Source: a virus. Taken from it: a stretch of DNA of 45,519 nucleotides. Of this stretch, positions 7,607-15,421 are shown piece by piece. The notes under the pieces are model-generated. The model did not search any database, was not told the DNA's origin, and was given only the letters and a program-made list of their open reading frames with translations. The translations under genes and the position numbers were made by a program. Position 1 is the first letter of the stretch; each line of letters begins with the position of its first letter. The stretch spans positions 1 through 45,519 of IMG/VR virus record IMGVR_UViG_3300023184_000222. One strand, written 5' to 3'.

Positions 7607-10114
7607 ATGGCTAATCAGAATATTTTAAGTTTTTATGGGTCTAAACTGGATTTAAAGGTGGATTATTCAGAATTATATGATTTTGAACTTACAAAAGTTC
7701 AAGATGATTTTAATGCTCAAGTTTTAGATTTCACAACTCCAATCACATATACGGGTCTAACAATCGACTCATCTTGTTTAACAGGATTAACGACGCCCTA
7801 TCTTGAAGTTACGGTAAACGAACCGTATACGGGTGGTACTTGTGATTTTACGGTTCGTAGGAGGACTGAGAAAGGATGGACTATAGATTTAGTTTTTAAT
7901 GGTGTTGTTACGGGAACAACATTTTATTATTTAGGTATAAAAGATGACTTAACTGACTCAAATTACGCGGATAACAATTTAACATTTTCATTTACGGATG
8001 ATAATAGAATAAAATGGGCAGCTTACCATTATTCAGGATATTGTACACCAGACATAGGATATACTGAAACTTATTATACAGCTTCAGGTCAAACTGAACC
8101 ATTATGTTTAGATGGTATTTCTTCAGATTTTAATATTACAATTACATTTGATAGATATAGACATTATACTAATTGTGATGTTGAAAATAAAGGAGGTTAT
8201 AATGATTTAATAGAGGGTCCTCATCCCGTACCATATTCAGACACTTCCGTAACCGCAGTCACATCTACACAGATTGCTTCCGGTTATACAATTACAAACA
8301 CATTTAAAGATTGGATGACAGGTGGTACATTAACATATGACTATACAGAATCATTAAATAAAAAATGGGCAGAGGAAAAAGATATGAGATTGGGTACATT
8401 AAAAATGTATTTGAATGGTAATCCAATTTATAAAGTTGAAAACTTTGAAGAAATTATACCTTCTTTAAGACAATCGGAAAATCCAATGATTCAAGTTTGG
8501 GGAGATACCTCATTAAATTATTATATTAAAAAAATACAATACTTTGAAGAACCTTTAGATTTTGTACATGTTAGACATCATTATAAAAATGTAATCGAAC
8601 CTAATTTTGATATTGTAGATTGTGTTACACCATGTATTGATGATATACGAGGTTTACGTTCTATTTTAATTACCCCAACACCTACGGTAACCACGACATT
8701 AACTCCTTCACCTACCGTAACGCCAACTTTAACTGTTACACCGACATTAACATCAACTATTACACCTACACCAAGTATAACACCAACAATTACTCTAACA
8801 CCAACAACATCTTATTGTTATAGATATACAGTTACTTCAGGTGACACTATTAATTTAACACAATTTAAATTAGGTACCGTAACATTAGATATTAGTTATA
8901 GAGATTTTTATGGTAGACAATATGATTTTAATCGTTTAACACAAAATAATGTAATTTATTTTACAGATTTAATTACCCAATCAAATTACGGTACATTTAC
9001 CGTTAATTCTGGTGGAGTTGTAAATAACGGAACATCTTGGACAATAAGTGGAAATTTTGTTGGTGATTTGAGCGCTAACCCAAGTGTTAACTTTAATGTA
9101 TGTTTTATTACAACAACATTAACACCAACTCCAAGTATTACACCAACATTTACAATGACCTCAACTCCAAATATTACACCAACAAATACTATTACACCTA
9201 GTATTACACCTACAAAATCTGTAACACCAACACATACTCCTACAAAATCTGTAACACCAACCCCAACAGTAACTTCAACTCATACTCCAACACATACCCC
9301 AACACCAACTGCCACACCTTCAATACCTTATATAGAATTAAATGTTGGAGTTGGTAATTCTTATTCAGAATCTTGTGATAACTACGCTAATTCATCATTT
9401 CAAACATTATTCTCAACTAAGAATATTACGTCAATAATAGTTGGTGATATTGTATATTCCGACACTGATGGTGGTTTATATTCAGGTTATTTTAGTTATG
9501 GTTCTAATTGGTATTATGTATCTTTCGGAGTTGTAATAACAATTCAATCGTGTTCGGTAACACCGACAACACCTCCGTCTATTATAACACCTCCACCATC
9601 AGGTTTTACATTTGATGCGGATTATATCATTGTAACATATTCATTTACAAATGGTCGAGATTTAGATACAAGAACAAGAATTAGTAATACAAATGTTGGT
9701 ATGAGTGAATATTTAGGTTGGGCTAATTTAGAAAGTTATCCAACGGAATCTCCTCAATCAATATTAATTTGGGGAGGAGATAATACAGGAAACGGATTTG
9801 AAGCTGTTTTAATAGATATAAAACAATTTAAATTACAATATCCGTCTGAAACGTCTATTACTATTGATATGAATGCTATGTGGTATGGAGAAGTTGGTAC
9901 TAATCCGGTGATTATGGAGGTAACAATGTATAAAGGAGGAATTGTAATTCCCGACCCAAATAATTATTTGTTTGTCGCAATTAATGCATCTGGTAAATAT
10001 GGTGTTGCTTCTACGGGAACTGTAATTAGTTTATTCTCACAAAATGCTTCAGATTTAGAACATGTCGCGTCGTTACAATATAATTTAACGAGCTTCCGAG
10101 GACAATTTATTTAG
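7607..10114 (+). CDS. Thr/Pro-rich fibre-like structural protein
   Basis: 835 residues with no enzymatic motif. Residues 1-350 are beta-rich with many Tyr, Thr and Gly. Residues about 357-402 and 503-572 are mucin-like linkers of repeated TPT, TPS and TVTPT units, joined by a small beta domain (about 403-500). A third short linker (VTPTTPPSIITPPPSG) precedes a C-terminal domain from about 667 to the end, starting FDADYIIVTYSFTNGRDLDT. The rigid, extended linkers and terminal beta domain fit a host-recognition fibre or surface adhesin. Thr-rich linkers are common O-glycosylation targets in Bacteroidota, and glycosyltransferase genes lie nearby; glycosylation is an inference. Exact location on the virion is unknown. 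Confidence 0.65.
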   Translation: MANQNILSFYGSKLDLKVDYSELYDFELTKVQDDFNAQVLDFTTPITYTGLTIDSSCLTGLTTPYLEVTVNEPYTGGTCDFTVRRRTEKGWTIDLVFNGVVTGTTFYYLGIKDDLTDSNYADNNLTFSFTDDNRIKWAAYHYSGYCTPDIGYTETYYTASGQTEPLCLDGISSDFNITITFDRYRHYTNCDVENKGGYNDLIEGPHPVPYSDTSVTAVTSTQIASGYTITNTFKDWMTGGTLTYDYTESLNKKWAEEKDMRLGTLKMYLNGNPIYKVENFEEIIPSLRQSENPMIQVWGDTSLNYYIKKIQYFEEPLDFVHVRHHYKNVIEPNFDIVDCVTPCIDDIRGLRSILITPTPTVTTTLTPSPTVTPTLTVTPTLTSTITPTPSITPTITLTPTTSYCYRYTVTSGDTINLTQFKLGTVTLDISYRDFYGRQYDFNRLTQNNVIYFTDLITQSNYGTFTVNSGGVVNNGTSWTISGNFVGDLSANPSVNFNVCFITTTLTPTPSITPTFTMTSTPNITPTNTITPSITPTKSVTPTHTPTKSVTPTPTVTSTHTPTHTPTPTATPSIPYIELNVGVGNSYSESCDNYANSSFQTLFSTKNITSIIVGDIVYSDTDGGLYSGYFSYGSNWYYVSFGVVITIQSCSVTPTTPPSIITPPPSGFTFDADYIIVTYSFTNGRDLDTRTRISNTNVGMSEYLGWANLESYPTESPQSILIWGGDNTGNGFEAVLIDIKQFKLQYPSETSITIDMNAMWYGEVGTNPVIMEVTMYKGGIVIPDPNNYLFVAINASGKYGVASTGTVISLFSQNASDLEHVASLQYNLTSFRGQFI

Positions 10115-10116
10115 AC

Positions 10117-10152
10117 ATTCCATAGATATTTGATATTTATGATATATGGAAT
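10117..10152 (+). promoter_or_regulatory. Inverted repeat enclosing a start codon
   Basis: ATTCCATA at 10117-10124 is the exact reverse complement of TATGGAAT at 10145-10152. The right arm contains the ATG (10146-10148) of the next gene and the 20-nt loop contains GATATTTAT at 10132-10140. In a read-through transcript the hairpin could mask the start codon; a transcript begun at the internal element would lack the left arm. Confidence 0.35.
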
Positions 10153-10514
10153 TTTTTATAAGACAAGGGGCTTCTGACCCAATATTGAAAATGAGAATGA
10201 TTGATGACGGAAAGAACGATAAATCATCTTTTAATGATTTATTGGAAAATGCTGAAATCACATTTGATATGTATGATAGTAATACGGGAGAACCAATTAT
10301 ATTAGCCTCACCTTGTAATATTACAACAAGAACAAAATTATATAACCAAACAACGGACGAGTATTATATCGTCTATAGATTCACATCAGAACAAACAGCA
10401 AACATGGGTAAATTTGAGGGTAAAATAAATGTCCAATTTAGAGATGTAAGTTTAACTCCAACTAATCTTTTAATTTTACCGGTAAAAGAAAAGTTATATA
10501 TTAACATCCATTAA
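10146..10514 (+). CDS. Small BppU-like baseplate or fibre protein
   Basis: 122 residues, all predicted beta: ILKMRMIDDG, then LENAEITFDMYDSNTGEPI, then YYIVYRFTSEQTANMGKFEGKINVQF, ending LPVKEKLYINIH. The order 'lowest-level strand with DDG, sandwich strand with F-x-M-x-D, GxFEGxIxVxF' resembles the N-terminal Ig-like domain of BppU-type baseplate upper proteins that anchor receptor-binding proteins. It directly follows the fibre gene by 31 nt, which supports an attachment role. The match is by pattern only. Its stop codon overlaps that of the convergent methyltransferase gene by 4 nt. Confidence 0.45.
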   Translation: MEFFIRQGASDPILKMRMIDDGKNDKSSFNDLLENAEITFDMYDSNTGEPIILASPCNITTRTKLYNQTTDEYYIVYRFTSEQTANMGKFEGKINVQFRDVSLTPTNLLILPVKEKLYINIH

Positions 10515-11626
10515 TAACTGAAATTTAAAAGTTCCGTGGTTGTCAAATAAGAACTATTAAAGTAGTTTTTAAAATTTGATGATGAGTTATTGAATACCTC
10601 ATATAGTTCCTCTAATTTTGTAATATCAGGATGTGTAACAATTAGAACGTGGTTTTCAAAAACATAATCTGTATTATCTCTCAATAAACAAAATTTCATA
10701 TTTTTACTTATAACACGAGACGTGATTATACAGTTAGGAATATTTTTATAATTGTTATTTCTAATATATTGTTTCTTACCTTCTTTTTTAGATTTAAGTT
10801 TACCACCAATCTCAACTGTATTTTTTTTAATATTATTGGTGTAAATTAATGTTTTGTTTCCAATCGGACTATCAGATAATGTCGGCATAACCGCATCAAG
10901 GTACCAAAGTATTTCACCAATGTTAACTTGAAATCCTCTTTCTCTTAATGTTAATTTATTAACATCTGTAACATTTTTTGTTAAAACATAAAAATTATCC
11001 GATAATGAAATGTTTTTATGTTCTTCATCTTTGGTTTTTTGAATTATCAATAAACAAACATCAATAGCAACTTCTTTAAATGGTATATTTTCAACAATAT
11101 CAAGAACGGTGTATTCTTCATATATTTGTTTTCTCATCATATTATACCAAGGACTTGATAATATTGTGGAGGGAAGTAAGAAAGCTAAAACACCACCATC
11201 TTTTAGTAGGTCAAAAGATTTATCCATAAAATAATGGATAAGATTATGTCGACCTTTAATGTCGTCTTTAAATTTATCAACCAATACCTTTTTCATCCAA
11301 TCATTATAAAATGAATTTATAACTTCAATATATGGAGGATTGCCGATGATAAAGTCATATTTTTTATTAAACTCGTAAAAAATAAAATCATTATTTATGG
11401 TATTAACCCCTTCAATACTTTTATAAACGTCGTTGTCAACTTCTAAAGCATCAATTGAAACATTGTATTTTTTAAGTTCTAAAACAAAATTACCAGTACC
11501 AAAACTTGGTTCAAGTACATCACCTTTAATCTCAACGTATTCTTTTATCTTATTGATAGTAAATTGACATTCATTTAAATCAGTATTAAACTGTCCATAT
11601 TTGGATTTATCACTTCTTGACATCAT
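10511..11626 (-). CDS. N6-adenine DNA methyltransferase, gamma class
   Basis: 371 residues. SAM-dependent transfer of a methyl group to the N6 of adenine in DNA. The order is that of gamma-type enzymes: motif X-like KSKYGQFNT (7-15), motif I LEPSFGTGNF (38-47), an acidic residue after the next strand (LEVDN, 61-65), and catalytic motif IV NPPY (96-99). The rest, about 250 residues, should hold the target-recognition domain, as in Eco57I/TaqI-like methylases. Two starts are possible (ATGATG at 11626/11623). The gene lies 34 nt downstream of a candidate restriction endonuclease on the same strand, so it probably protects phage DNA against that enzyme and host systems. Target sequence unknown. 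Confidence 0.9.
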   Translation of the reverse strand: MMSRSDKSKYGQFNTDLNECQFTINKIKEYVEIKGDVLEPSFGTGNFVLELKKYNVSIDALEVDNDVYKSIEGVNTINNDFIFYEFNKKYDFIIGNPPYIEVINSFYNDWMKKVLVDKFKDDIKGRHNLIHYFMDKSFDLLKDGGVLAFLLPSTILSSPWYNMMRKQIYEEYTVLDIVENIPFKEVAIDVCLLIIQKTKDEEHKNISLSDNFYVLTKNVTDVNKLTLRERGFQVNIGEILWYLDAVMPTLSDSPIGNKTLIYTNNIKKNTVEIGGKLKSKKEGKKQYIRNNNYKNIPNCIITSRVISKNMKFCLLRDNTDYVFENHVLIVTHPDITKLEELYEVFNNSSSNFKNYFNSSYLTTTELLNFSY

Positions 11627-11660
11627 TTACTAATATACAAAAAATAATTCATTAAAAAAA

Positions 11661-12365
11661 TTAAAAATCAGTTAATTCGTTAATTAATTTAATTACATTT
11701 TTATATTCTGGATCAAACAAATCACATGGTTTAGAATCATCTTGGAAATCCATTCTAAATCTAACTCTTTTACCTGATTTTATTTTAGATAATGAAATAT
11801 TACGTCCCTCATCAATTTCATGTTGTTCTAAATTAATTCTTACCAATTCATCGTAAAGATTTTGATTATCGTCACCATATTCTAAACTTGTAAACAAATA
11901 ATTTTTTTGTGCTGTTGAATTATAAAAACTAATTAGTCTATTAAATCCATACCATCCGGTGTTCCATTTAATAAGTTCTTTTTTATTTTTCTTATCTTCG
12001 TGTGATAAAAATCCTTTAACACTTATATATAAAAAATCAGGAGAATTTTGTGAACCAAATGGTTGGGGAAAAAAATATATTTTATTTAAATCAATATTTG
12101 GAAAAAATTCTTTTAAATCTAATAATGTAAATTCTGAATTTAATCCTTTTACAACCTTTTGTTTTAAATTTAATCTAGCATTTACAAATAATTTTCTTTT
12201 ACTCTCAAAAAATTTATTCATGATTTCTCCACTAACAATTAAATCAGGATCAGATTTTAAAATTATAGTTTCGATATCTTTTTCTCTTTTAGTTTCGTGC
12301 CATACATTTTCTGAGTAAGAAAATAAATTGGTTAATATTTTAAAAAATCTTTCACTTTTAGTCAT
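11661..12365 (-). CDS. Candidate type II restriction endonuclease
   Basis: 234 residues from the ATG at 12365. The key region is FPQPFGSQNSPDFLYISVKG (98-118), followed by KKELIKWNTGWYG (128-140) and a strand NYLFTS. A GSQ-x-SPDF block, then a strand with K and a KWN-G segment, is a layout I associate with type II endonucleases of the PD-(D/E)xK superfamily. Here Pro109-Asp110 would be the PD, and the next strand reads SVK rather than ExK, so the second acidic residue is not certain. Residues 198-207 (GKRVRFRMDF) may contact DNA. Adjacent to the methyltransferase, it completes an apparent restriction-modification pair. A longer start at 12491 is possible but would add a poly-hydrophobic A/T-tract translation, so I reject it. 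Confidence 0.55.
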   Translation of the reverse strand: MTKSERFFKILTNLFSYSENVWHETKREKDIETIILKSDPDLIVSGEIMNKFFESKRKLFVNARLNLKQKVVKGLNSEFTLLDLKEFFPNIDLNKIYFFPQPFGSQNSPDFLYISVKGFLSHEDKKNKKELIKWNTGWYGFNRLISFYNSTAQKNYLFTSLEYGDDNQNLYDELVRINLEQHEIDEGRNISLSKIKSGKRVRFRMDFQDDSKPCDLFDPEYKNVIKLINELTDF

Positions 12366-12523
12366 ATTATTAAATTTTATATAAAATAATGAAAAAAAAA
12401 TAATAAAAAAAATAATCATATATAATTTTTTAATACCCCCTTTTTTCTTTATATTTATTAATGTAAACAAGGCAAACTGTGATTTTATCACAAGCTAATA
12501 CGTCAAATTATAAAATAAAAAAT
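12366..12523 (+). promoter_or_regulatory. Divergent control region with palindrome and ATATTTAT element
   Basis: 158 bp between the endonuclease and DNA polymerase genes. It holds ATATTTATT at 12451-12459 (sense to the polymerase), a C5T6 tract just before it, and a perfect palindrome TGTGATTTTATCACA at 12478-12492. The palindrome is shaped like a dimeric repressor or CRP-type operator but has a 5-nt rather than 6-nt centre between TGTGA and TCACA. It could let one regulator control both directions. Confidence 0.45.
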
Positions 12524-15421
12524 ATGAAAGAGGTTATCTCTCAGGAAGTTATTGAAGGCTTCCTTAATGGTGGTGACGACGAAATGTATATCGTTGGTGT
12601 TGAATACGACTATCCCACAAATACAATTTACAAACTTATTCAAGACCCTGAACAAGGGAAAATAGTTAAACCAGATTCGTTTACACCATTCTTATGGGTT
12701 GGTGATTTAACGGGTATGAATTTCTATAATAACTCAAAAGCCATGCAGAAAAAACGTATGGGTGAGTTTGGTATTCTAATTGAAAAATTAGACACACACG
12801 GCAACGAACGTTTAGAAAATGGCATGACCCATATTGTTAGAAGTATTAAATCTTATACGGATTTAGTTTCGTTCTTTAGAATGGGTGGATTAAACCCTTG
12901 GGATGAGAAATGTAGACACTTATTTACTATCTTAAACCCTGTGGAACAATATCTTATACAGAAGAAAAAAAGATTATTTAAAGGTATTGATGATTACGGT
13001 GGTGTTAATAGATTTGTGTTTGATATTGAAACCACAGGTCTTGACCCACAAACTTGTGTGATAATATTAATTGGAGTTAAAGATAATAAAGGATTAAATG
13101 AAACAATACCCGCATTTGGTGAAGATGGTGAGAAGAAATGTATAGAAAGATTTTTTCAATATATAAAAGATTTAAAACCAACCATTGTGGCGGGTTATAA
13201 CTCCGCCTTTTTTGACTGGCCTTTTATTTTAAAACGTGCGGAGATATTAGGTGTTGATGTTGATGGTCTTACACAAATTTATACATCCCAAGGTATGAAA
13301 GAAAAAGAAGGGATGTTAAAACTTGCCAACGAGATTGAACCATATACACAACACGTTATATGGGGATTTAATATTATTGATATTGCCCATTCAGTAAGAC
13401 GTGCTCAAGCAATCAATTCTGAAATTAAATCTTGGGGATTAAAATATATTACAACTTATTTGGAGAAAGAAAAACCTAATCGGGTTTATGTAGATGGTGC
13501 TAAAATTTCCAAGATTTATCTTGATAATGAAAGTTATTATGTAAATCCTAAAACAGGTAATTACAAAAAAATTGGAGAACCGGGTACAGAAAATATTTTA
13601 CAAAAATATCCAGGTAAATTTGAGATATGGCCAGGTAGAAAAATTGTAGAACAATATCTAGATGATGACTTGTATGAAACTATGGTAGTAGATGATAGTT
13701 TTTCTCAATCAACATTCTTACTTTCTAAATTGGTTCCTACCACATATGAAAGAATTGCCACAATGGGTACGGCAACATTATGGAAGATTATTATGTTAGC
13801 ATGGTCTTATGAAAATAATTTAGCAATTCCATCTAAAGATGAGAAACGTGCTTTCACAGGAGGTTTATCTCGTTTATTAAATGTTGGTTACGCGAAGAAC
13901 ATTGTTAAGTTTGACTATGCATCACTCTATCCGTCCATTCAATTAGTATATGATGTGTTTCCCGCGTGTGATGTAATGGGTGTACAAAAATCAATGTTAA
14001 AATATTTTAGAGATATTCGTATCAAATATAAACATCTTGCCGGTGAGTTAAAAGATAAAGACCCTGTATTAGCGGAGATGTACGACCGTAAACAATTACC
14101 AATTAAGATTTTTATCAATGCGTATTTTGGTAGTTTATCCGCACCACATGTATTCCCTTGGGGAGAAATGGATTCAGGTGAAACTATTACTTGTATTGGT
14201 CGTCAGTGTTTACGTATGATGATTATGTTCTACATGAAGAAGGGTTATAAACCTCTTGTAATGGATACAGATGGTGTGAACTTTGAAACACCCGATGGAA
14301 TTGAAAATACAAGATACATTGGTAAAGGATTAAATGAATTAGTGAAAGAAGGAAAAGAATACACAGGTATTGAAGCTGACACCGCAGAATTTAATGATAT
14401 ATTCATGAGAAATGAAATGGGATTGGATATTGACTATGTTGCTCCAGCTTGTATTAATGTTTCTCGTAAAAACTACATCATTAAGATGATGAAGAAAGGT
14501 AAAGAGAAAATTAAATTAACAGGTAATACAATTAAATCAAAAAAATTACAAACATATATTGTTGAGTTTTTAGATGAGGGATTAAAATATTTGTTAAATG
14601 GTGATGGTCATTCATTTGTTGAATTATATTATGAATATGTAAGTAAAATTTATAATAAAGAAATTCCATTATCAAAGATTGCTAACAAAGCTCGTGTGAA
14701 ACAAAGTATTAATGATTATAAAAAGTATGTTATGAAAACTACTAAAGCAGGTTCATTAATGTCTCGTCAAGCACATATGGAATTAATTATGTTAAATGAT
14801 TATCCGGCAGGTTTAGGAGATACAATTTATTATGTTAATAACGGTGTAAAGAAATCATCAGGTGATGTACAAAAGATTGCTAAACCATCAAAGAAATCAC
14901 AGGAAGAATTTATTGCTAAACATGGTCATCCGATGCCGAATGATTATATTGAAGTTAATTGTTACATGATTGATGAAAAAGAAATATTAAATAATCCAGA
15001 TTTAAAAGGAGATTATAATGTTCCTCGTTATCTTAATAACTTTAACAAACGTGTGGAACCTTTATTAGTTGCTTTTCATCCGTCAATTAGAGAAGATATA
15101 TTAATTGAAACTCCCGAAGAAAGACAATACTTTACAAAACAACAATGTGAACTCGTTAATGGTTATCCATTAAAAGAAGAAGGTCAAGATAAATTAGATG
15201 AAGTTATGACGTTGTCTGATAGTGAAGTGATATTTTGGAATAGAGTTAAGAGAGACCCTTACTTTATGTACGTTGAAAATAGTTTAGAACTTGCTGACCA
15301 ATATTGGGTTGAGCACAATAGAAAAGTTGTTTCATTACAAGAACAAAGCATTATGTCAAATGAAGATGAGATAATTGAAACTAACGGACACGATTATGCA
15401 TTTCATGCAATAGAAAGTTAG
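12524..15421 (+). CDS. 43: Family B DNA polymerase with 3'-5' exonuclease
   Basis: 965 residues from the ATG at 12524; an upstream GTG at 12479 would add 15 residues but lies in the operator palindrome. Replicative polymerase. Exonuclease motifs: FDIETTG (166-172), NSAFFDWPF (226-234) and YLDDDLYET (378-386). Polymerase motifs: A, DYASLYPS (464-471); B, KIFINAYFG (528-536); C, MDTDG (580-584). Motif C normally reads DTDS; here Gly replaces Ser but both catalytic Asp are kept. The length is near that of T4 gp43 (898 residues) with added C-terminal sequence. Its stop codon overlaps that of the convergent gp13 gene by 4 nt. Function is confident. Confidence 0.95.
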   Translation: MKEVISQEVIEGFLNGGDDEMYIVGVEYDYPTNTIYKLIQDPEQGKIVKPDSFTPFLWVGDLTGMNFYNNSKAMQKKRMGEFGILIEKLDTHGNERLENGMTHIVRSIKSYTDLVSFFRMGGLNPWDEKCRHLFTILNPVEQYLIQKKKRLFKGIDDYGGVNRFVFDIETTGLDPQTCVIILIGVKDNKGLNETIPAFGEDGEKKCIERFFQYIKDLKPTIVAGYNSAFFDWPFILKRAEILGVDVDGLTQIYTSQGMKEKEGMLKLANEIEPYTQHVIWGFNIIDIAHSVRRAQAINSEIKSWGLKYITTYLEKEKPNRVYVDGAKISKIYLDNESYYVNPKTGNYKKIGEPGTENILQKYPGKFEIWPGRKIVEQYLDDDLYETMVVDDSFSQSTFLLSKLVPTTYERIATMGTATLWKIIMLAWSYENNLAIPSKDEKRAFTGGLSRLLNVGYAKNIVKFDYASLYPSIQLVYDVFPACDVMGVQKSMLKYFRDIRIKYKHLAGELKDKDPVLAEMYDRKQLPIKIFINAYFGSLSAPHVFPWGEMDSGETITCIGRQCLRMMIMFYMKKGYKPLVMDTDGVNFETPDGIENTRYIGKGLNELVKEGKEYTGIEADTAEFNDIFMRNEMGLDIDYVAPACINVSRKNYIIKMMKKGKEKIKLTGNTIKSKKLQTYIVEFLDEGLKYLLNGDGHSFVELYYEYVSKIYNKEIPLSKIANKARVKQSINDYKKYVMKTTKAGSLMSRQAHMELIMLNDYPAGLGDTIYYVNNGVKKSSGDVQKIAKPSKKSQEEFIAKHGHPMPNDYIEVNCYMIDEKEILNNPDLKGDYNVPRYLNNFNKRVEPLLVAFHPSIREDILIETPEERQYFTKQQCELVNGYPLKEEGQDKLDEVMTLSDSEVIFWNRVKRDPYFMYVENSLELADQYWVEHNRKVVSLQEQSIMSNEDEIIETNGHDYAFHAIES

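What the first reader, a model, noticed from the sequence alone, without database searches (positions are those of the whole stretch)
10511..12365. Apparent complete restriction-modification pair carried by a T4-like phage
A gamma-class adenine methyltransferase (NPPY motif) lies 34 nt from a 234-aa protein with the GSQNSPDF and KWN layout of PD-(D/E)xK restriction enzymes, both on the same strand and both inserted between a fibre module and DNA polymerase. Phages often carry lone methylases; a partner nuclease would turn this into a weapon, for example against superinfecting phages or host DNA, rather than mere protection. The strand after PD reads SVK, not ExK, so the nuclease may be unusual.
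Basis: partly seen in the sequence, partly recalled or inferred. Interest (0 to 1): 0.78.

Follow-up and report, generated by a model that had tools for sequence, protein, structure and literature searches.

The report
Phage-borne restriction-modification gene pair
A T4-type bacteriophage carries, as a private two-gene insert, a DNA methylase and a restriction-type nuclease belonging to a little-noticed nuclease family found mostly in phages, which probably lets it mark its own DNA and cut unmarked DNA of rivals or the host.

Summary
On the minus strand, 34 nt apart, lie a 234-aa protein (11661-12365) and a 371-aa gamma-class adenine methylase (10511-11626). The methylase matches TaqI/Eco57I-type enzymes. 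The 234-aa protein matches nothing in Pfam, NCBIfam, PHROGs or the PDB, and nothing credible in PADLOC. Relatives of the methylase showed what it is: the best full-length viral methylase matches (L090, L091, L118-120) each adjoin a PD-(D/E)xK nuclease homologous to it. A profile built without the window protein finds it at E=5e-9 (shuffles reach at most 5.7 bits against 30.2). Over 20 diverse members it keeps every invariant residue. The catalytic triad reads D110...E123-D-K125, so the 'SVK instead of ExK' oddity is a misreading. Of 20 non-redundant loci including the window, 17 have a methylase nearby; others have a PF01555-type methylase, mostly cyanophage-like contigs. The pair is a ~1.92 kb, 24.5% GC insert absent from the corresponding site of 80 close relatives; that site is a cargo hotspot. 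Best reading: a complete type II restriction-modification pair. Activity, recognition site and use against competitors or host DNA are inferred, not shown. Complete R-M systems in phages are known but have been called nearly absent.

The parts
11661..12365 (-). 234-aa PD-(D/E)xK restriction-endonuclease-type protein; catalytic residues by alignment D110, E123, K125; also conserved E28, Q101, P102, G104, Q106, P109, G118, N135, R204
   Evidence: homology; conserved residues; model
10511..11626 (-). 371-aa gamma-class N6-adenine DNA methyltransferase (motif I LEPSFGTGNF, motif IV NPPY), TaqI/Eco57I type
10509..12430 (.). extent of the inserted cassette (edges to within a few bases): replaces the last codon(s) of the 122-aa gene and stops where the conserved intergenic sequence TTTTTAATACCCCC resumes; GC 24.5% versus 30.3% for the window
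11661..12491 (-). longer GTG-start reading of the nuclease ORF (276 aa); extra N-terminal 42 aa judged unlikely because they lie over the pol 5' leader and have no counterpart in relatives
10146..10514 (+). 122-aa fibre-module gene bordering the insert on the left (conserved in relatives)
12524..15421 (+). family-B DNA polymerase bordering the insert on the right (ORF listed from 12479; likely ATG at 12524)
12469..12505 (+). conserved covarying hairpin element in the polymerase 5' leader, left intact by the insertion

Best explanation
The locus is a complete type II restriction-modification pair carried as optional cargo by a T4-type myophage. The methylase puts N6-methyladenine on a short target in the phage genome. 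The PD-(D/E)xK nuclease cuts the same target when unmodified, using D110, E123 and K125 to hold the metal ions. During infection the pair would spare methylated phage DNA and cut unmethylated DNA, either the host chromosome (nucleotide supply, shut-off) or co-infecting phages that lack the cassette. Shown: gene identities, conserved catalytic residues, conserved linkage of homologous pairs in unrelated phages, recent insertion. Inferred: activity, a shared target, expression, and the benefit.
For: The nuclease is homologous to a family whose members keep E28, Q101, P102, G104, Q106, P109, D110, G118, K125 and N135 in all 20 sequences and E123 in at least 90%. The top full-length viral methylase matches of the window methylase (L090 E=1e-27, L091 E=1e-21, and L118-120) each have a nuclease homologue next door (gene orders), and their methylases align end to end with the window's, including the C-terminal half that holds the target-recognition region in TaqI-type enzymes. 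17 of 20 non-redundant loci (19 representatives at 75% identity plus the window) have a methylase within about 1.5 kb, of at least two families, Eco57I/gamma and PF01555. AlphaFold2 with the family alignment places D110 just before strand 111-115 and E123/K125 inside strand 118-127, the expected PD-(D/E)xK hairpin. The pair is absent from the site in 80 polymerase-matched relatives and from 50 whole records, and has the lowest GC of the contig, as expected of a recent two-gene acquisition.
Against: The window nuclease is divergent (about 20-25% identity to relatives) and departs from the otherwise common WNSGxP...YVFSS stretch, so it could have lost activity or changed function. The structure model is only moderately confident (pLDDT 62, pTM 0.61; residues 159-221 below 50) and Foldseek gives no significant match. 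In roughly a quarter to a third of the viral loci, mostly one cyanophage-type clade on short contigs, no methylase was detected within the DNA held. No target site or expression data exist.
Confidence: 0.77

Rival explanations
1. The methylase is the selected gene (protection against host restriction) and the nuclease is a decaying or inactive passenger left from a captured bacterial or phage R-M system.
For: Solitary methylases that protect against restriction are common in phages (e.g. lactococcal 936 phages, title and abstract of PMC4190342 as listed). The nuclease is divergent, has a changed WNTGWY stretch and very low GC3 of 0.11.
Against: Full-length ORF without stops, and all invariant family residues including the catalytic triad are kept despite about 20-25% overall identity, which is not expected under drift.
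Confidence: 0.12
2. The nuclease is a free-standing homing or mobility endonuclease that spreads the cassette into the fibre/polymerase junction, with the methylase as protective or hitchhiking cargo.
For: The site is a cargo hotspot; four relatives carry a different small protein there, matching Pfam PDDEXK_11 above the curated cut-off in L018 and below it in L040. PD-(D/E)xK homing enzymes exist (I-Ssp6803I is among the non-significant fold hits). Some family members have no methylase in the DNA held.
Against: Most family members sit next to methylases of different families in other genomic positions and unrelated phages, which fits R-M better than one homing site; only one of 81 genomes carries it here.
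Confidence: 0.07
3. The nuclease acts in phage DNA metabolism (host DNA breakdown or junction resolution) independently of the methylase; adjacency is coincidental.
For: Holliday-junction resolvases and other PD-(D/E)xK nucleases head the non-significant fold list; lone copies exist in some cyanophage-type contigs.
Against: Absent from all 80 close relatives at this site and from 50 whole records, so not a core replication function; linkage to methylases in 17 of 20 non-redundant loci.
Confidence: 0.04

Closest known systems
R.Nph3I / M.Nph3I of temperate phage NrS-3 (PMC10734518)
   Same: Complete type II R-M pair of adjacent genes in a tailed phage, biochemically active.
   Different: NrS-3 is temperate and its nuclease is a BglII-type (pfam09195) enzyme of RGATCY; the window protein has no Pfam match and sits in a T4-type myophage.
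Chlorovirus and Marseilleviridae R-M pairs (PMC7253447)
   Same: Virus-encoded R-M gene pair; proposed to degrade host DNA (chloroviruses) or exclude competitor viruses (marseilleviruses); patchy presence among relatives.
   Different: Eukaryotic viruses, GATC-type CviAI-related nucleases; homology to the window nuclease not tested.
Unannotated nuclease/methylase pairs of cyanophages ACG-2014j/S-CAM4 and S-SKS1, and of Helicobacter phage Pt11470_1
   Same: Homologous PD-(D/E)xK nuclease (annotated 'hypothetical protein') next to or one gene from a DNA methylase.
   Different: The cyanophage methylases are PF01555 type rather than Eco57I/gamma; the Helicobacter phage partner, annotated SAM-dependent methyltransferase, has no Pfam match.
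M.TaqI and the Eco57I methylase family (PF07669)
   Same: Gamma-class N6-adenine methylase core, NPPY motif.
   Different: Only the catalytic part aligns with TaqI; target unknown.

Membership tests
Type II restriction-modification system | DNA methyltransferase gene with intact catalytic motifs | tested here: met
   PF07669 2e-16, PADLOC MTase_II 2.9e-24, TaqI 3e-11; motif I and NPPY conserved
Type II restriction-modification system | Adjacent gene for a separate restriction-endonuclease-type protein | tested here: met
   34 nt apart, same strand; nuclease homologous to a family linked to methylases
[quoted passage not shown]
   No site known; co-occurrence of homologous pairs in L090, L091, L118 is indirect support
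Type II restriction-modification system | Cleavage blocked by partner methylation | not testable with these tools
   needs biochemistry
PD-(D/E)xK nuclease superfamily | PD ... (D/E)xK motif in register with homologues | tested here: met
   P109-D110 and E123-D-K125 align with PD...ECK of relatives
PD-(D/E)xK nuclease superfamily | Core fold with the catalytic residues on a beta-hairpin | tested here: inconclusive
   Model has the hairpin (strands 111-115, 118-127) and following strands, but pLDDT 62 and no significant Foldseek match
Named REase families (Pfam, NCBIfam, PADLOC, PDB) | Significant match to a curated restriction enzyme family or solved structure | tested here: not met
   No match above chance in Pfam, NCBIfam, PHROGs and the PDB; only an implausible RT_II-A match at 0.0096 in PADLOC (three relatives in PADLOC, Pfam and NCBIfam; PDB profile). 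REBASE not available.

The most novel reading that the evidence does not exclude
The nuclease belongs to an unlisted restriction-enzyme family that is chiefly a phage lineage: modular R-M pairs (one nuclease family combined with at least two methylase families) that circulate among T4-type and cyanophage-type phages and act in phage-phage or phage-host conflict.
Probability: 0.5. Interest if true: 0.7.

Novelty: new member of a known kind. Interest (0 to 1): 0.52.

Why it matters
Complete R-M systems have been described as nearly absent from phages (introduction of PMC10734518). Here a nuclease family with no entry in Pfam, NCBIfam, PHROGs or PADLOC turns up next to methylases in phages of several kinds, including genome-sequenced cyanophages where it is annotated only as hypothetical. 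If active, these pairs let a phage turn restriction against competitors or the host, and they supply a set of new restriction enzymes with matched methylases. The named cyanophages and the Helicobacter phage make the idea directly testable.

Tried and rejected
Single-sequence searches with the nuclease failed everywhere: Pfam, NCBIfam, PHROGs, PDB, phages and plasmids (11, 16), IMG/VR and genome contigs by its own peptides (13, 15, 26); PADLOC gave only an implausible RT_II-A match at 0.0096 (22). Single-sequence AlphaFold2 was useless (pLDDT 40). The route that worked was relatives of the methylase, then their neighbours. The Klebsiella plasmid methylase neighbour (L089) proved unrelated. The weak matches L116 and L085 were set aside: those proteins belong to a different REase family (PDLC03488). 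Reading SVK as the catalytic motif was rejected because it leaves only 4 residues between D110 and S115, where relatives have about 12-13 between D and E, and because E123-D-K125 aligns with ExK. Assembly chimera is unlikely: both flanks match the same relatives (91-95% for L003) and the intergenic leader resumes intact. Foldseek gave only non-significant hits; HincII, Hjc resolvases and I-Ssp6803I are among the top ones, which I treat as no evidence.

Full report
OBSERVATION. On the minus strand the 234-aa ORF (11661-12365) is read first, then after 34 nt the 371-aa methylase (10511-11626). The neighbours on both sides, a 122-aa fibre-module gene and a family-B DNA polymerase, are on the plus strand. 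The phage is T4-type in gene content: tail sheath, UvsX-like recombinase, DnaB-like helicase, exonuclease, head-tail adaptor. The record is a 45.5 kb IMG/VR fragment.

METHYLASE. Pfam Eco57I at 2e-16, M.TaqI at 3e-11, and PADLOC MTase_II over nearly the whole length at 2.9e-24. Motif I and NPPY are intact, and the protein aligns end to end with methylases of three other viral lineages at 25-29% identity.

NUCLEASE: HOW IT WAS IDENTIFIED. The 234-aa protein alone hits no curated family and no annotated phage or plasmid; its one PADLOC match, RT_II-A at 0.0096, is implausible. The top hits were ORFs immediately beside the full-length methylase homologues: L118-120 (phmmer 1e-5), L091 (0.001) and, by motif, L090, a 430 kb phage contig. 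Using these I found homologues in Synechococcus phages S-CAM4/ACG-2014j and S-SKS1, a marine virus and a Helicobacter phage, nearly all annotated 'hypothetical protein' or not annotated, and then at least 120 IMG/VR loci. A profile rebuilt without the window protein finds it with 30.2 bits, E=5e-9; 200 shuffles of it reach at most 5.7 bits.

CATALYTIC MOTIF. In alignments of 8, 10 and 20 members the window protein keeps every invariant column: E28, Q101, P102, G104, P109, D110, K125 and N135 throughout, plus Q106 and G118 in the 20-member set and R204 in the smaller sets. ExK falls on E123-D124-K125 ('HEDKK'), matching IECK of relatives. One relative, L090, does have S in place of E (ISCK), so that position is not absolutely fixed in the family. 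AlphaFold2 with the 20-member alignment (pLDDT 62.5, pTM 0.61) gives strands 111-115 and 118-127, with D110 at the start of the first and E123/K125 within the second; residues 159-221 are unreliable. Foldseek found nothing significant in the PDB or the viral library, so the fold claim rests on sequence homology and motif register.

LINKAGE. Among 87 loci with a family member (83 plus L090, L091, L118 and L172; redundant), most have a methylase overlapping or within about 1.5 kb: the Eco57I/gamma type in the window, L090, L091 and L118-120, and the PF01555 type in most of the rest. After clustering at 75% identity (21 clusters, two of them C-terminal fragments that I dropped), 16 of 19 representatives plus the window, 17 of 20, have one nearby. 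About two dozen loci, mainly one cyanophage-type clade, have none in the DNA held. Searching 23 whole records of that group for PF01555 found a methylase in 3, by my arithmetic about 10 kb from the nuclease; most of the others are short contigs. So the association is strong but not absolute.

DISTRIBUTION. A scan of 84,980 bacterial and archaeal genomes with a family motif confirmed only 3 loci (Prochlorococcus and two Mycoplasmataceae), while a similar motif in IMG/VR confirmed 120. The motifs were not identical, so this is suggestive, not a measurement.

INSERTION. Eighty IMG/VR loci with 81-95% identical polymerase were fetched. None has the nuclease or the methylase in the held DNA, and 50 whole records of that set have no nuclease match and only one weak 48-residue partial methylase match (E=1.4e-4). 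In most of them the 122-aa gene is followed directly by the polymerase leader. Comparing junctions shows that the insert begins at the last codons of the 122-aa gene and ends where TTTTTAATACCCCC of the leader resumes: about 10509-12430, 1.92 kb. GC is 24.5% against 30.3% for the window; the lowest 1.85-kb window of the contig lies here. The same junction holds other cargo in relatives: a PDDEXK_11-type protein (L018; related L040, L041, L044), a 2OG-Fe(II) oxygenase (L028), and extra fibre-like genes. This is a cargo hotspot.

MECHANISM AND RIVALS. The most economical reading is a type II R-M pair used as optional cargo. What it cuts in nature is not shown. Chlorovirus pairs were described as attacking host DNA and marseillevirus pairs as excluding competitors (PMC7253447). 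Jumbo-phage authors also wrote of phages deploying their own R-M systems against competing elements during pseudolysogeny (PMC7824862). Private, patchy presence in one member of a dense group of near relatives would suit competitor exclusion, because relatives without the cassette would be unprotected; this is inference. Rivals, in order, are a passenger nuclease beside a protective methylase, a homing-type nuclease, and an unrelated metabolic nuclease.

NOVELTY. A complete, active phage R-M pair is already known (NrS-3; PMC10734518, which notes that such systems were considered nearly absent in phages). What is new here is the example and a nuclease family not present in the libraries searched. 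REBASE was not available, so I file it as a new member of a known kind.

Noticed in passing
window 12469-12505 (+), and the same place in L003-L078: A 37-nt element AAGRCAAACU-hairpin-AAGCUAAUAYGUCA in the 5' leader of the DNA polymerase, found by regular expression in 56 of 81 sequences (18 distinct versions). All 144 pair cells form standard pairs, with 23 two-sided compensatory changes (0 of 500 shuffles reach this); no Rfam match. It may be a translational operator for the polymerase, comparable in position to the T4/RB69 gene 43 operator (from memory).
   Followed up: partly
L018:738-1118, L040:7561-7947, L041:6091-6477, L044:1890-2276 (+): At the same fibre/polymerase junction, related phages carry a different small protein matching Pfam PDDEXK_11 (L018 2.7e-05, above the curated cut-off; L040 0.0017, below it).
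   Followed up: partly
L174:4631-5584 and homologues L206, L207, L218, L228, L242: A conserved protein of about 317 aa with no Pfam match often sits between or beside the nuclease and the methylase in cyanophage-type loci; it may be a third component.
   Followed up: no
window 7607-10114 (+): 835-aa fibre-module protein with long TPTxTPT-type threonine/proline repeats; similar repeats occur in variable fibre-like genes at the same junction in L026 and L062.
   Followed up: no
L172:2827-3381 (+): Family nuclease with no methylase in the 6 kb held; downstream lies a protein that looks like an NAD-dependent DNA ligase (by eye, not tested).
   Followed up: no
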